Below the pieces are notes generated by a model. That model had not been told where the DNA came from. It did no database searches and saw only the letters and a program-made list of their open reading frames with translations. The position numbers and the translations under genes are program-made. From a virus: 20,054 nt of DNA. The stretch spans positions 1 to 20,054 of the IMG/VR virus record IMGVR_UViG_3300031957_000732; one strand, 5' to 3'. Below, piece after piece: positions 259 to 19,481 of this stretch (position 1 is the first letter of the stretch; every line of letters starts with the position of its first letter).

Positions 259-1404
259 TTAATTTTTGTCATGCATTCTGACTATCTCGCCAAAAGGCAC
301 TTTCATGTTGTCATCACTTGTGGTAGATATCCACAGTACAGGGTACTCAGGCTCTTTACCAAAGTCATTACAATACAAGTCAGTAAGAAACACACAAGCC
401 AATGGCTGTATATCTTTCTTATCTAGGTATTCAAATACAGGGCTGAATGCTGTACCACCCCCACCATGAGGCTTAATTACAACATCATCTCCTTTATTGA
501 ATTCATCATAGTGAGATACTTCACTATCGAAGTACACCACATGTAAACGACTTGGTAGTAAGTCTTGCCATATGGTATTTATCTCACTGTTAAATTGGTT
601 TATCTCATCTTGACCAACAGAGCCAGAACAATCAACAGCCACAGCTATCTCGCCTAGTCCCATGCCTGTAACACTAGGCATATACATTCCTTGGGTAATA
701 AATCTTCTGTTAGGTCTAGCATAAGTTCTATCATCAACACGAAGTTTTTGCATAAACTTAAGTAGTACTTCTTTCCAATCTACTTTAGGTCTAAGTACTT
801 CATTCACTAGTCTTTCAATACCAGAGGTCATCTTACCCATAATCTTAGTAGCATTGGCTGATTGAGCCACTTTAACTTTCCATTGGGCTGATAGTCTATC
901 CAAGTCAGATTGTGTCTTAACTTGTTTATCACTGTTGTTACCAATACAATCATCTAATGGCTGTCCCTCGCCACCCATACCTTGCTCATCTTTCGGTGTA
1001 TCAGGTAGTAGATTGTAGATACCATCAGTATTTCCTTTACCTTGTTCGTAGATATTCCTATCAAGTAAGCCACCATCTGGCATTTTACCAATCCCATCTT
1101 CATTAAGCATATGATTGATTACATAGTCACCAGCTTGATTCCACTTGTAGCTATCTCTAGTCTCTAGTCTGAAACAATGTCCTAGCATAGGGTGACATAC
1201 CTCATGTGCTAGAAGAAACACTAGCTCCTCATCAGTTAGACTATCCACATAATCAGGGTTTAGTACAATTACCTCACCATTTGTACCAGCTGTTGGTATA
1301 CTTGTGTCCCATATTATATCCATACCGAACAGTAGATTACCAACAAAGGGGTAGCGAAGTATCAACTGAGTCTTAGCTCTCTTTACTCTTTCATCTCTAG
1401 TCAT
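259..1404 (-). CDS. Metallopeptidase-like N-domain plus VWA-like domain protein (DUF2201/VWA type)
   Basis: The 381-aa protein has two parts. Residues about 10-130 hold HEVCH at 67-71 with a further His76, a zinc-peptidase HExxH motif as in the DUF2201 N-terminal domain. Residues about 250-375 form a VWA-like domain with a complete MIDAS metal site: D258-x-S260-x-S262, Thr318 after a GGGG turn, and Asp342 in LTDLY. Family knowledge: such proteins pair with MoxR AAA+ ATPases, which remodel targets while the VWA protein binds them. Here the AAA+ gene (2264-3304) lies two genes upstream, with a helical protein between. The start overlaps the upstream stop region by 8 bases, implying coupled translation. 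Whether the peptidase motif is active is unknown. Domain calls are strong; the phage role is not known. Confidence 0.9.
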   Translation of the reverse strand: MTRDERVKRAKTQLILRYPFVGNLLFGMDIIWDTSIPTAGTNGEVIVLNPDYVDSLTDEELVFLLAHEVCHPMLGHCFRLETRDSYKWNQAGDYVINHMLNEDGIGKMPDGGLLDRNIYEQGKGNTDGIYNLLPDTPKDEQGMGGEGQPLDDCIGNNSDKQVKTQSDLDRLSAQWKVKVAQSANATKIMGKMTSGIERLVNEVLRPKVDWKEVLLKFMQKLRVDDRTYARPNRRFITQGMYMPSVTGMGLGEIAVAVDCSGSVGQDEINQFNSEINTIWQDLLPSRLHVVYFDSEVSHYDEFNKGDDVVIKPHGGGGTAFSPVFEYLDKKDIQPLACVFLTDLYCNDFGKEPEYPVLWISTTSDDNMKVPFGEIVRMHDKN

Positions 1405-2263: not shown

Positions 2264-3304
2264 TTATCTACCAGCTTGTGTAAACTTGGCGTTCTTAACC
2301 ATCAACTCTGCATAAGGCTTACCTACTGCAACAAATGGCTCGATACCATGCTTACTCTGTACCATTTTCAGTGCAAGTATTGAATACTCTGCTCTGTCAT
2401 TATCAAACAATCTGTCTAGATACTTGATAAAGTTTTCAGCATACTCATTGGCAATAGTACCAATAGAGGCACACAAGGCACACATAACATCTGGTTTCTC
2501 TGGTATTAGTGCTGTACTAGGTGACTTAAGTATTTCTTCAGGTTTAGGTAGGTCTGCATAAGTCTGTAGAAAACCAACAAACTCAGCTCCAGCTCCCTCA
2601 CCAACTGCCCCCATAATACATTCTTGCAATGTAATATCTACACTACCATCTTTCATGTAGTCATTACCCCACAACTCCATGATAGCTGACACACCCTCAA
2701 CCCAAGACCTTGGTGTAGGACTTTGCTCTTTTTGTGGGTTAAACATGTGCAGTAAGTCTGGTCTAAATTGTACAAACCCTTGCACAAGAGGGTGAACACC
2801 ATTTTCTGATGACCAATCTAGCCAATTAGATATGTTAGTATCTAGCTCAACTATAGTCATTCTATTACCTAAGTGTCTTAGCATTGATACAACACCAGAC
2901 CTATCGGATTGTTTATTACCTGTCATAATAAACATAATGTCCTTTAGTTTTTTACCATGATGAATACCACTTTGTACCATGTTAGCTACAACCTTTTGTA
3001 TATCGTGACTAGCCTGACCGAAGTCATCTAAACACACAATAACTTGTTGGTCATGCTTACTACCCTCAACAGGTATCCACTCAGGTAACACATACTTGAT
3101 AGTGCCATCAGGCTGAGGCATAGGTATACCCATATCCTCTACCAACATAGTAGGCATATGTACTTCTACATATTCTACTCCTAGTTTCTTGGCTACATCT
3201 CTGACAATGGTAGTCTTACCACCACCTGGAGAGCCTTGTATATAGGTAGTTCGCTTAATAGCAAACAATCTCTCCAATGTAGTCATTAGTTCTTTAGCTT
3301 TCAT
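2264..3304 (-). CDS. MoxR-type AAA+ ATPase
   Basis: A 346-aa AAA+ ATPase. Visible motifs are Walker A GSPGGGKT at residues 24-31, Walker B VIVCLDDF at 88-95, sensor 1 MTGN ending at Asn130, and a likely arginine finger in RHLGNRM (143-149). An SPTPRSWV segment near residue 200 looks like the sensor-2 region of the MoxR/AAA_5 group. The second acidic residue of Walker B is Asp94 rather than the usual Glu, which could slow hydrolysis. MoxR ATPases act as chaperone-like remodelling machines with VWA-domain partners; the partner here is encoded at 259-1404. It starts with ATG at 3304 with AGGAG 7 bases upstream, and is the first gene after the structured gene-free stretch at 3305-3859. Cyanophages carry an analogous AAA+ gene (annotated cobS), but identity with it is not claimed. 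Confidence 0.93.
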   Translation of the reverse strand: MKAKELMTTLERLFAIKRTTYIQGSPGGGKTTIVRDVAKKLGVEYVEVHMPTMLVEDMGIPMPQPDGTIKYVLPEWIPVEGSKHDQQVIVCLDDFGQASHDIQKVVANMVQSGIHHGKKLKDIMFIMTGNKQSDRSGVVSMLRHLGNRMTIVELDTNISNWLDWSSENGVHPLVQGFVQFRPDLLHMFNPQKEQSPTPRSWVEGVSAIMELWGNDYMKDGSVDITLQECIMGAVGEGAGAEFVGFLQTYADLPKPEEILKSPSTALIPEKPDVMCALCASIGTIANEYAENFIKYLDRLFDNDRAEYSILALKMVQSKHGIEPFVAVGKPYAELMVKNAKFTQAGR

Positions 3305-15111: not shown

Positions 15112-15444
15112 ATGGCAGATGTAATTAAATTAGTAAAAGGAGATGAGTTACCGTTAATTATATTAACTTTAACTGACGATGTAGCTAACACAGCACTAGA
15201 TTTATCGGCTGGAACTACTTCGGTGTCTGTAAAATTTAGGGCTGTAGGTGGAACATCAGTGTTATCCACAATAAGTTGTGCAAAAACAACAGATGGTTCA
15301 GATGGTAAGATACAATTTAGTTTTGCAGGTGGTGTATTAGATGTTGATGAAGGTTCGTATGAAGGAGAGATTATAGTTAATTATAATGGTAGCTTACATA
15401 CAGTATACGATTTGTTAAAATTTAGAGTAAGGAGTAGTTTCTAG
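15112..15444 (+). CDS. Small beta-sandwich tail protein (BppU N-domain-like)
   Basis: A 110-aa all-beta protein that opens with the strand pattern VIKLVKGDELPLIILTLTDD. It continues with TALDLSAGTTSVSVKFRAVG and an EGEIIVNYNGSLHTVYDLLK C-terminal strand set. This arrangement resembles the BppU N-terminal (baseplate upper protein) domain, an Ig-like fold used to hold fibres on phage tails. The assignment is pattern-based. It begins 6 bases after the adaptor stop and its own stop overlaps the next start (TAGTG), so the next protein, a serine-rich repeat protein, is probably its partner. Cell role: structural part of the virion. Confidence 0.65.
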   Translation: MADVIKLVKGDELPLIILTLTDDVANTALDLSAGTTSVSVKFRAVGGTSVLSTISCAKTTDGSDGKIQFSFAGGVLDVDEGSYEGEIIVNYNGSLHTVYDLLKFRVRSSF

Positions 15445-16157
15445 TGGCTAATATAAGACTTACATCCGCTTTAGCAGCAACAGCCATATCATTTACAGTA
15501 AGTGTTAGTAGCATTTCTTCAGCTGTATCTGGTGAAACAGAAGTTGTTGCATCTTCAGCTTTAGGAACAAGGATATCATTTAGTCATGAATTAGTACCGA
15601 CTAGAACTATGGTAGGTGTTTCGGTTAGTCTATCAGATGTAGTTAACTCAAAAAGTATTACACATCCATTAACAGAAATACCATCTATAACAGAAACCCC
15701 AGTTATAAATGTAAGTCAAGTTTCTACTGATTCATTTTCCGTATCAGATGCTCCAGTATTTAATCTTTCACAAGTTCTAGCTGATACAGCTACTATTTCA
15801 GCAACACCAAGTAAAATATTTCAGTCTGAGATTGATTTTGATTTATCTGATTCTGATATAGACCCAGACCCAGTTACTGTGTCTGATAGTCTTGTCGTTC
15901 AGTTTGAATATGATTTAGCAGATACACCATCTATAGCAGATTCGCCAGCATTAAATGTAACACCTGCAGGTAAATCAGATAGTGTTTCTATTTCAGATTC
16001 ACCAGTGTTACAACCAAGTTTAGCACCAACAGATAGTGTTACGCCTGGGGACAGCGGTGGATTAGTAATCAATTACGTGTATACTGATGTAGATGACACT
16101 ACATTAGGAGGACATTATTTTAACCAAACTCCAATTAATCCTGGAGGGTATGAATAG
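15444..16157 (+). CDS. Ser/Asp-rich repeat protein, probable virion fibre or stalk
   Basis: It starts with GTG at 15444, overlapping the preceding stop by one base. The 237-aa product has almost no positive charge and a repeated core, a (S/T/A)D(S/T)PV-type word at residues 83, 101, 119, 147, 165, 184 and 202. Spacings are mostly 18 (18, 18, 28, 18, 19, 18). Each repeat ends in a DS-S(V/I) type strand. This near-regular 18-residue repeat suggests a repetitive beta structure or thin stalk. It follows a BppU-like protein and precedes further tail proteins, so a structural role is likely. The repeat DNA has drifted, so it is not a recent duplication. Confidence 0.7.
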   Translation: MANIRLTSALAATAISFTVSVSSISSAVSGETEVVASSALGTRISFSHELVPTRTMVGVSVSLSDVVNSKSITHPLTEIPSITETPVINVSQVSTDSFSVSDAPVFNLSQVLADTATISATPSKIFQSEIDFDLSDSDIDPDPVTVSDSLVVQFEYDLADTPSIADSPALNVTPAGKSDSVSISDSPVLQPSLAPTDSVTPGDSGGLVINYVYTDVDDTTLGGHYFNQTPINPGGYE

Positions 16158-16626: not shown

Positions 16627-18063
16627 ATGACCGTTCTATTTAAAAACAATGCTCATTCGACATTAGCTTCTAGCATTACGGATTCTGCTACAAGTATTAC
16701 TCTTGCTTCAGGTCATGGAGATGCTAGGTTTCCAGTTACAGCAAGCCCAAATTATTTTTACGCAACTCTCATTGATAATTCAAATAACTTAGAGGTTGTA
16801 AAATGTACTGCAAGGTCTAGTGATGTCCTTACAGTTGTTAGAGCTCAAGAAGGTACCTCGGCAAGAGCTTATTCTACAGGTGATAGAATAGAGCTTAGAA
16901 TTACTGCACAAGGTTTAGAAGATTTAAATGGTACCCGAGCTAGTGAATATAAATCAGATTGGGGTAGTTCATCAGCCCCTATAACTCATACTGTAACTGT
17001 TGGAACTAAAACAGGTGCACACCCCTATACAGGCGTAGGTTCTAGTAATGCTTATTTTATAGACAACATAGAGTCGCCTGTTCTAGCGTTTGATGGTGCA
17101 GATACAGGTAAAACATACTACTACAGATTTGACCAATCAGATTCAAGTAACAGTGGACATCCATTATTATTTTATTTAAATGCTGCAAAAACTACAGCAT
17201 ATACAACCAATGTAGCAACAAACGGAACACCTGGTAGTGCTGGTGCGTACACACAGATTCAAGTAGATGAGTACACTCCAAACCTATTGTACTATCAATG
17301 TAGCAGTCATGCTCATATGGGTAATTACATACATCATATTTCTAATATGCACAATAGTAATGGCGTGTTGTTTAAAATGCCTACAGCAGATGGCTCTGCT
17401 GGGCAAATAATAAAAACTGACGGCTCTGGAGTATTAAGTTTTGTAGCAGCAGCAACAGCAACATACCCAACTGTTACAGGAGTAACTCCTTCAGCTACAG
17501 GTAATACTGCGGCTAACCTTGTTATTGCAGGAACAAATTTTGTTATAGGGTGTCATGTAGAATTTATAAATTCATCTGGGGTTATAACTCTACCAAATAG
17601 TATTACAAGAGATTCGGCAACACAGATTACAGTTAACGCAACTTTACCTACAGATGGCACATATTTTATTAGAGTTGAAAACCCTGATGGTTTAGCAGCT
17701 CGTAGCTCATCAGCAATTCTTACAGTATCTGATGCTCCTACATGGTCTACAAGTGCTGGAAGTCTTGGAAGTGTAGCAGCAGGAGATTCTGTCAGTTTAG
17801 ATGTAGACGCTTCTTCAGATTCAACAGTAGCGTTTAGCGAAACAACAAGTGTGTTAACCAGTAATTCTGACACACCTGCAAGTACAATGAATTTAACTCT
17901 CAACTCGTCTACAGGAGCCATTACTGGCACAGCTCCTAGCCCAACAGGTGAAACAACTTATAACTTTACCCTACGAGCTACAGATGCAGAGGGTCAAACA
18001 GCAGATAGGGCATTTAGTATAACCATATCAGTAGGCATGAACAACACAGGACAATTCAACTAA
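16627..18063 (+). CDS. Modular tail fibre with cupredoxin-like, IPT/TIG and Ig-like domains
   Basis: A 478-aa modular protein. Residues 1-100 form a tail-attachment domain of the common phage type (TSITLASGHGDARFP, VRAQEGTSARAYSTGDRIEL). About 119-241 is a cupredoxin-like domain with GHPLLFYL (His178) and YYQCSSHAHM (Cys225, His228, Met231). C-x2-H-x2-M plus an upstream His is the full type 1 copper ligand set. About 281-367 is an IPT/TIG domain (GVTPSATGNTAANLVIAGTN). About 371-468 is an Ig-like domain of the He_PIG kind (STGAITGTAPSPTG, RATDAEGQTADRAF). It starts behind AAGGAG and ends overlapping the next gene (TAATG). Related cupredoxin-like domains are known from marine phages; copper binding here is unproven. 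Role: host adhesion. Confidence 0.85.
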   Translation: MTVLFKNNAHSTLASSITDSATSITLASGHGDARFPVTASPNYFYATLIDNSNNLEVVKCTARSSDVLTVVRAQEGTSARAYSTGDRIELRITAQGLEDLNGTRASEYKSDWGSSSAPITHTVTVGTKTGAHPYTGVGSSNAYFIDNIESPVLAFDGADTGKTYYYRFDQSDSSNSGHPLLFYLNAAKTTAYTTNVATNGTPGSAGAYTQIQVDEYTPNLLYYQCSSHAHMGNYIHHISNMHNSNGVLFKMPTADGSAGQIIKTDGSGVLSFVAAATATYPTVTGVTPSATGNTAANLVIAGTNFVIGCHVEFINSSGVITLPNSITRDSATQITVNATLPTDGTYFIRVENPDGLAARSSSAILTVSDAPTWSTSAGSLGSVAAGDSVSLDVDASSDSTVAFSETTSVLTSNSDTPASTMNLTLNSSTGAITGTAPSPTGETTYNFTLRATDAEGQTADRAFSITISVGMNNTGQFN

Positions 18064-19481
18064 TGGCAGCAAATTCATATTTATCAAAAGCAACATCATC
18101 AGCTGGGAATCAAAAAACCTTTACAGTATCAGCATGGGTAAGACAATCTATGTTGGTATCAAATCCAAGACATATTGTAGGTAGTGATGTAGAAGATGAT
18201 GGTGCAAACTATTGTCATTTTTCTATTGAAGCAGATGGCACATTAAAATTTTTAGCTTTAGCATCTTCTAGTATAATTGCAAATATAGTATCAATACCTA
18301 AGTTTATAGACACAACTGCATTTTACCATTTAGTATTAAGATGTGATACAACGCAAAGTACAGCAGCAGATAGAGTAAGAATATATGTTAATGGAAGTCA
18401 AGTTACTGCTTTAACTTATCACACTACTCCGAGTCAAAATGATGACTTAGGATTATTCAAAAGTGGAAGTGCTACTTTAATTGGTGCAAGACACCCAAGC
18501 ACAAATCCACATTTTTTTGAAGGAGAAATGGGTATGGTTTGTATAGCAGATGGTGCTAGTTTAGCTCCTACAGTATTTGGAGAAACAGATAGTACAACTG
18601 GAATATGGAAACCCATACTTAGCCCAACCTTTACTGCTGGTACAAATGGAGCTATGTTAAAATTCGAGAACTCAGGAGCATTGGGAACTGATAGCAAAGG
18701 TTCAAATAACTTTACAGTTAATGGTAATCTAAAACAAAGCAATAGCACTGCTAGTAACAAGTTTCCAGCTTTAAACCCAAGAGGTACTCATGCAGATTAT
18801 GATGGATCTAACTATAATCTTCATGCTGGACACACTGCATTAATGACAACAGGTGTAAACAGACCAGCTCCTATAGATATGTGTTTTCAAGGTGGTAAAT
18901 GGTATTGGGAATGTAAGATTGAAAAAGCAAATATGTTCGCAACACTTGGTGTATATATGACTGACTTCTCATCTCCAAAAAGAATAGAGCAATTTAATGC
19001 TGACTTAGCTTTACAATCTGCTGCTAATGGTGGTAAACGAGCAGTTAGTTTTCTAACATCTGCTAGTTCATCACAAATTCAAAATGCTGGTAGCACAGTA
19101 ACTTATGGTGCTAACTGTAGTGATGGAGATATTATTATGTTTGCTTTTGATTCAGCTACAGGCAAGGTATGGACAGGTAGAAATGGAACTTGGAATAACG
19201 CACCTGGAACATCTAATGTTGGCGACCCTGCTGCTGGTACTAATGATAGTGGTACAGTATTAACAAACACAGATAATGATTTAATGTCATTTTATATTAG
19301 TGGGCGAAACTCAGATGCAGCAAACAGACATATGTATATAAATTTTGGACATGGCTACTTTGGAACTACTGCAGTCGCATCAGCAAATGCAGATGGTAAT
19401 GGTGAAGGAGCATTTGAGTATGCACCACCAACTGGATTCTTAGCTTTGTGTAGCAAAAACATTCAATCAGACGGAGGGTAA
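18063..19481 (+). CDS. LamG-like and SPRY-like receptor-binding protein
   Basis: A 472-aa all-beta protein without a signal peptide. Residues about 5-180 look like a LamG/concanavalin-type jelly roll: KTFTVSAWVRQSM, FYHLVLRCDTT and RVRIYVNGSQV are the usual strands, and GARHPSTNPHFFEGEMGMVC closes the fold. Residues about 268-470 look like a SPRY-type domain: GGKWYWECKI, GDIIMFAFDSATGKVWTGRN and FEYAPPTGFLALCSKNIQ. Both folds bind sugars or proteins. The protein starts overlapping the fibre gene (TAATG) and has no obvious trimerisation region, so it may bind the preceding fibre. Role: probable host-surface recognition. Domain calls from motif patterns only. Confidence 0.82.
   Translation: MAANSYLSKATSSAGNQKTFTVSAWVRQSMLVSNPRHIVGSDVEDDGANYCHFSIEADGTLKFLALASSSIIANIVSIPKFIDTTAFYHLVLRCDTTQSTAADRVRIYVNGSQVTALTYHTTPSQNDDLGLFKSGSATLIGARHPSTNPHFFEGEMGMVCIADGASLAPTVFGETDSTTGIWKPILSPTFTAGTNGAMLKFENSGALGTDSKGSNNFTVNGNLKQSNSTASNKFPALNPRGTHADYDGSNYNLHAGHTALMTTGVNRPAPIDMCFQGGKWYWECKIEKANMFATLGVYMTDFSSPKRIEQFNADLALQSAANGGKRAVSFLTSASSSQIQNAGSTVTYGANCSDGDIIMFAFDSATGKVWTGRNGTWNNAPGTSNVGDPAAGTNDSGTVLTNTDNDLMSFYISGRNSDAANRHMYINFGHGYFGTTAVASANADGNGEGAFEYAPPTGFLALCSKNIQSDGG

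What the first reader, a model, noticed from the sequence alone, without database searches (positions are those of the whole stretch)
16981..17349. Cupredoxin-like domain with complete type 1 copper ligands in a tail fibre
His178, Cys225, His228 and Met231 reproduce the H...C-x2-H-x2-M order, with the Cys-His-Met spacing of amicyanin. Domains of this sort are recurrent in marine phage fibres, but why a phage would keep a potential copper site is not established: copper sensing, adhesion to a metal surface protein or only fold stability.
Basis: partly seen in the sequence, partly recalled or inferred. Interest (0 to 1): 0.6.

Follow-up and report, generated by a model that had tools for sequence, protein, structure and literature searches.

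The report
Copper-site domain in phage tail fibre
A marine phage tail fibre carries a small plastocyanin-like domain whose four copper-binding residues are kept almost without exception in relatives across ocean phages and some ocean microbes, so marine phage particles very likely carry copper on their host-facing parts, though nobody has yet measured it.

Summary
Confirmed. The ORF at 16627-18063 (+, 478 aa) is a tail fibre whose residues ~113-244 form a cupredoxin domain. AlphaFold2 gives it pLDDT 91; PDB structure matches are led by type 1 copper proteins. His178, Cys225, His228 and Met231 sit where cupredoxins carry their ligands: the first His just before a strand, then C-x2-H-x2-M (amicyanin's spacing) in the last inter-strand loop. 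Of 225 homologous copies with all four columns readable, 220 keep H/C/H/M. Four of the five exceptions lose two or more ligands together while the domain still scores, so the residues look kept as a unit for a metal, not for folding. A plastocyanin-family profile aligns with the phage family (hhalign 93%; reversed and Ig-domain controls 0.1-0.2%), ligand on ligand. The module is swapped between fibre types, is absent from some pelagiphage fibres, and also occurs in surface-type proteins of marine archaea and bacteria. Pfam and NCBIfam do not name it and I found no paper on it. Copper binding is strongly predicted, not shown; side-chain distances could not be measured. Most likely role: a copper-rigidified display or adhesion module in the fibre. 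Copper-dependent docking remains open.

The parts
16627..18063 (+). tail fibre protein, 478 aa, carrying the cupredoxin domain
   Evidence: ORF; PHROG tail-fibre families phrog_30742 E 5e-38 and phrog_8469 E 2e-26; N-terminus matches PDB 8jov 'putative tail fiber protein' E 2e-16
16627..16932 (+). N-terminal region, aa 1-102, resembling the N-terminus of the 8jov tail fibre (likely virion-attachment part); a different N-terminus replaces it in related fibres
   Evidence: junction at aa 103 in 29 related loci
16963..17358 (+). cupredoxin domain, aa ~113-244
   Evidence: AF2 pLDDT 91.4; Foldseek/VIA cupredoxin matches; hhalign to the plastocyanin family 92.9%
17158..17160 (+). His178, first predicted copper ligand, just before a strand
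17299..17301 (+). Cys225, predicted thiolate ligand at the end of the penultimate strand; the usual sole Cys of the domain (216 of 220 copies)
17308..17310 (+). His228, predicted ligand in the last inter-strand loop
17317..17319 (+). Met231, predicted axial ligand in the same loop
17467..17727 (+). IPT/TIG-like Ig domain, aa ~281-367 (assigned by eye from sequence; no Pfam hit above cut-off)
   Evidence: shared with pelagiphage fibres HTVC104P and HTVC022P that lack the cupredoxin
17761..18030 (+). putative Ig domain (He_PIG), aa 379-468, distal part of the fibre
   Evidence: PF05345 34.9 bits, above cut-off

Best explanation
Residues ~113-244 of this tail fibre are a cupredoxin domain with an intact type 1 copper site of the short amicyanin loop type (His178, Cys225, His228, Met231). 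It most likely binds one copper ion per chain, taken up during assembly or from lysate or seawater. It most likely serves as a copper-rigidified display or adhesion module between the virion-attachment end and the Ig-like distal domains, exchanged between fibres as a cassette. Shown here: predicted fold, homology, ligand positions and their conservation as a set, cassette exchange. Inferred: copper occupancy, and the stabilising/adhesive role.
For: (1) The AF2 domain model has pLDDT 91.4; strand order places His178 (domain H67) just before strand 69-72, Cys225 (C114) at the end of strand 109-114, and His228/Met231 (H117/M120) in the loop before the last strand 122-127, the cupredoxin arrangement. 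(2) The top 23 Foldseek PDB hits are cupredoxin-fold proteins, nearly all copper-binding, led by rusticyanin, E 2e-3. VIA best is three-domain NirK, residues 24-137, Z 8.7, rmsd 2.9 over 103 residues. (3) A plastocyanin-family profile from genomic PF00127 proteins aligns to the phage profile at 92.9% (E 3.7e-7); reversed profile 0.2%, the fibre's own Ig domains 0.1-0.2%; His, Cys, His and Met pair up, with two residues fewer in the loop. (4) In 56 clusters under 70% identity the ligand columns are H 95%, C 94%, H 94%, M 96%. In a set fetched only by the YxFDQxDxSN motif, so not selected on ligands, 26-27 of 29 clusters keep each ligand. (5) Deviant copies lose ligands together: NSAM, FSQM and HNNY lose three, DCHL two, HCHQ one; 0 of 20,000 permutations reach three triple losses. 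(6) 216 of 220 copies have a single Cys, arguing against an intradomain disulfide. (7) Surface-type homologues in MGII archaea, Actinomarina and Prochlorococcus keep C-x2-H-x2-M in all 20 complete copies. (8) Cassette behaviour.
Against: No metal measurement exists. Individual Foldseek scores are modest (no PDB hit with E <= 0.001; TM about 0.42), and VIA Z 8.7 is only just above the tool's caution level. The first His is followed by Pro, not the Asn of amicyanin or Ser of rusticyanin, so the site's second shell differs from known type 1 sites. Free copper in seawater and in bacterial cytosol is very low (own knowledge), so loading is not guaranteed. The stabilising/adhesive role rests on architecture only. 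The permutation test ignores relatedness.
Confidence: 0.6

Rival explanations
1. Copper-dependent receptor docking: the copper-loaded fibre is recognised by, or mimics, a copper-handling surface protein of the host, a copper analogue of the Trojan Horse idea proposed for iron in phage tails.
For: The domain sits in host-facing tail and baseplate proteins and also in surface-type proteins of marine microbes. The iron version is argued for phage tails in PMC11705849.
Against: No receptor is known; the domain is found in phages of very different hosts and in baseplate proteins as well as fibres; fibres with the same C-terminal region do without it.
Confidence: 0.15
2. The domain stays copper-free in nature; the Cys/His/His/Met cluster is kept for another reason, such as packing at the barrel end, binding another ion, or a protein-protein contact.
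For: No metal data; modest structural similarity scores; non-canonical His-Pro next to the first ligand.
Against: Ligands are lost together while the domain still scores, so packing does not need them; the same set is kept in distant cellular homologues; a solitary Cys is otherwise easily lost.
Confidence: 0.17
3. Redox-active site: the fibre accepts or donates an electron, for instance to the host surface or as a redox switch of fibre conformation.
For: Cupredoxins with this ligand set are mostly electron carriers (own knowledge); fold match to electron-transfer cupredoxins.
Against: No partner or redox enzyme is evident among the window genes searched; a virion has no evident electron source.
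Confidence: 0.07

Closest known systems
Amicyanin / plastocyanin-family cupredoxins (Pfam PF00127)
   Same: Cupredoxin fold; ligand order H...C-x2-H-x2-M, amicyanin loop length (His53, Cys92, His95, Met98 in PMC12723479); profile homology 92.9% with ligands paired
   Different: Below Pfam cut-off (2 of 63 members match at all, best E 0.017); His-Pro instead of amicyanin's His53-Asn54; embedded in a virion fibre; no known electron partner
Rusticyanin and the N-terminal cupredoxin domain of three-domain NirK
   Same: Best structural matches (Foldseek E 2e-3; VIA Z 8.7)
   Different: About 15% identity; rusticyanin's loop is longer (own knowledge); enzyme or respiratory proteins, not adhesins
At5g54830-like domain (Pfam PF25489)
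   Same: Best Pfam resemblance of the family: 17 of 63 members, best E 7e-4
   Different: Named after a plant protein; below cut-off for the window sequence (13.6 of 27 bits)
HxH iron-binding phage fibres (T4 gp37 type; Trojan Horse hypothesis)
   Same: A phage tail fibre predicted to carry a transition metal (PMC11705849)
   Different: Different fold, ligands and metal; the window's H228-x-H230 is incidental, as position 230 varies (G/Y/L)
Ig-like decoration domains of phage structural proteins
   Same: Exchangeable beta-sandwich modules in host-facing proteins; this fibre also has He_PIG
   Different: No profile similarity to the cupredoxin (0.1-0.2%); no metal ligands

Membership tests
Type 1 copper cupredoxins (fold and site) | Greek-key beta-sandwich of the cupredoxin fold | tested here: met
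   AF2 pLDDT 91.4; PDB matches dominated by cupredoxins
Type 1 copper cupredoxins (fold and site) | Ligands His, Cys, His, Met in order, with C/H/M in the loop before the last strand | tested here: met
Type 1 copper cupredoxins (fold and site) | Ligands conserved as a set among homologues | tested here: met
   220 of 225 copies; concerted losses; cellular copies
Type 1 copper cupredoxins (fold and site) | Sequence homology to known cupredoxins | tested here: met
   hhalign 92.9% against 0.1-0.2% controls
Type 1 copper cupredoxins (fold and site) | Four side chains within bonding distance of one point | not testable with these tools
Type 1 copper cupredoxins (fold and site) | Binds copper with the S(Cys)-Cu charge-transfer band | not testable with these tools
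   needs purified protein
Pfam PF00127 (Copper-bind) | Score above the family cut-off | tested here: not met
   no hit for the window protein; 2 of 63 homologues at E <= 0.1
Amicyanin | C-x2-H-x2-M loop | tested here: met
Amicyanin | Asn next to the first His ligand | tested here: not met
   His-Pro in 84% of clusters; amicyanin has Asn54
Amicyanin | Electron carrier for methylamine dehydrogenase | not testable with these tools
   no such enzyme was seen among the window genes searched
HxH iron-binding fibre | Conserved HxH pairs | tested here: not met
   H230 is not conserved: the column is G 37%, Y 20%, L 15%
Ig-like decoration domain (He_PIG/TIG) | Profile similarity to Ig-like domains | tested here: not met
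   hhalign 0.1-0.2%

The most novel reading that the evidence does not exclude
Marine tailed phages have taken up a distinct family of type 1 copper domains as exchangeable virion modules shared with the surface proteins of marine archaea and bacteria, and use bound copper in host recognition or fibre function. Phage particles would then be an uncounted pool of tightly bound copper in seawater.
Probability: 0.22. Interest if true: 0.85.

Novelty: new variant of a known kind. Interest (0 to 1): 0.58.

Why it matters
Metal in phage tails has been argued mainly for iron. That bears on adsorption, virion stability and the marine copper budget. It is directly testable with cultured phages: P-SSM2, S-TIM5, Mosig EXVC030M and HTVC028P match the domain, while HTVC022P, on the same host HTCC1062 as Mosig and HTVC028P, lacks it in its fibre.

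Tried and rejected
Single-sequence search with the domain found nothing in the PDB by sequence; only the profile did, weakly (pseudoazurin 3tu6, E 0.088), so that hit is not used as evidence alone. Full-length AF2 with 16 sequences was poor (pLDDT 55.5; much of the cupredoxin region under 50) and is not used; the domain model with 63 sequences is. Scan A2 used a pattern containing Cys and His, so ligand counts were repeated on the unbiased set. A disulfide role was rejected (one Cys per domain). The HxH iron reading was rejected (H230 not conserved). Literature searches for cupredoxin with phage fibre or virion and plastocyanin-like with cyanophage gave no papers; the one paper with copper-binding, tail fiber, phage and marine concerns viral NirK. 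A look for a precedent in Skeletor/Knickkopf papers gave nothing usable. Only open-access papers were searchable.

Full report
Observation. ORF 16627-18063 (+) encodes 478 aa. It is a tail fibre by PHROG matches, and its first ~107 residues match the tail fibre of PDB entry 8jov. The window is a viral record with terminase, SU10-type portal, adaptors and major head protein, so this is a tailed phage; its relatives are marine. The motif with this spacing occurs in 0 of 942 ORFs without the domain.

Fold. With 63 aligned homologues, AlphaFold2 gives the 134-residue domain pLDDT 91.4, pTM 0.85, nine strands. Against the PDB, Foldseek's top ranks are rusticyanin, NirK and laccases. VIA gives residues 24-137 of a three-domain NirK Z 8.7 (rmsd 2.9, 103 residues), followed by two-domain laccases, rusticyanin and the purple cupredoxin of Nitrosopumilus. 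Single scores are modest, but the lists agree on one fold class. The ligands fall where cupredoxins have them: first His just before a strand, Cys at the end of the penultimate strand, His and Met in the loop after it. That the four side chains meet in space is expected from this topology; it was not measured.

Homology. The family scores below Pfam and NCBIfam cut-offs; Pfam's nearest are PF25489 (At5g54830-like) and, weakly, PF00127. I therefore built a plastocyanin-family profile from PF00127 proteins in genomes and compared profiles. The probability is 92.9% (E 3.7e-7), against 0.2% for the reversed profile and 0.1-0.2% for the fibre's own Ig-like domains. The alignment pairs His with His, Cys with Cys, His with His and Met with Met, with a two-residue shorter loop, as in amicyanin and in a cyanobacterial member seen here (CTPHPFM, L266).

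Conservation. 262 copies were gathered. In 56 clusters under 70% identity the ligand columns are 94-96% conserved. Of 225 copies with all four columns, 220 are H/C/H/M; the exceptions are NSAM, FSQM, HNNY, DCHL and HCHQ. The losses are concerted, and the domain is still recognised without ligands, which argues against a purely structural reason for keeping them. The result holds in the set fetched without reference to ligands. Codons vary synonymously at Cys and His (TGT 156/TGC 65; CAT 138/CAC 83).

Distribution and mosaicism. Matches are in marine cyanophages, pelagiphages, Methylophilales phages and unassigned phages, in tail fibres, baseplate wedges and other virion proteins. Twenty-nine related loci (L015-L038, L040-L044) share aa 103 onward with this fibre but carry another N-terminus. 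HTVC104P and HTVC022P share the C-terminal Ig region at 48-49% identity but lack the cupredoxin. The module also ends putative lipoproteins with collagen-like repeats in Marine Group II archaea and Thr-rich tethered proteins in Actinomarina, and begins proteins in Prochlorococcus that look secreted; all 20 complete copies examined keep C-x2-H-x2-M. BFVD also gives hits in giant viruses.

Mechanism. Best reading: a copper-binding cupredoxin used as a rigid display or adhesion module in the fibre. Predicted fold, homology and ligand conservation are shown; copper occupancy is strongly inferred; the role is inferred from position and cassette exchange. Copper-dependent docking is the interesting rival, in analogy to iron in phage tails (PMC11705849). 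Redox activity is least likely. Second-shell difference: the first ligand is followed by Pro (84% of clusters), where amicyanin has Asn54 and rusticyanin Ser86, so an unusual spectrum or potential is expected.

Novelty. The fold and site type are known; their use as a recurrent virion module is, as far as the searchable literature shows, undescribed. Hence a new variant of a known kind.

Noticed in passing
window 259-1404 (-) and 2264-3304 (-): A DUF2201 metallopeptidase plus VWA protein near an AAA ATPase, resembling a MoxR/VWA pair, carried by the phage.
   Followed up: no
L226, L232, L297-L302: Marine Group II archaeal putative lipoproteins with collagen-like Gly-rich repeats ending in the same cupredoxin domain with all ligands.
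   Followed up: partly
L233, L235-L237, L290-L296: Actinomarina secreted-type proteins: signal-like start, long Thr/Pro tether, C-terminal cupredoxin; found in 7 of 42 genomes of the family.
   Followed up: partly
L289:2887-3810, L288:1261-3753: Pelagiphage fibres with the same Ig tail but a different module (LNCSQNSHGV...) in place of the cupredoxin: natural domain-minus comparisons.
   Followed up: partly
L252, ORF 3393 (1558 aa); L257: Proteins with a more classical cupredoxin copy (YYYQC..HNGMYGTI) that bridge the phage family and PF00127.
   Followed up: partly
window 18063-19481 (+): Next gene downstream: a 472-aa protein with a concanavalin-A-like (Laminin_G_3) domain and a weak SPRY match, probably another host-facing virion protein.
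   Followed up: no
window 15444-16157 (+): 237-aa Ser/Asp-rich low-complexity protein with no family match, just upstream of the fibre genes.
   Followed up: no
BFVD A0A481Z6J5, A0A481YY19 and others (outside the window): Giant-virus 'beta-sandwich proteins' (Pithovirus, Marseillevirus) match the domain model (TM 0.68-0.72, 20-25% identity); ligands not checked.
   Followed up: no
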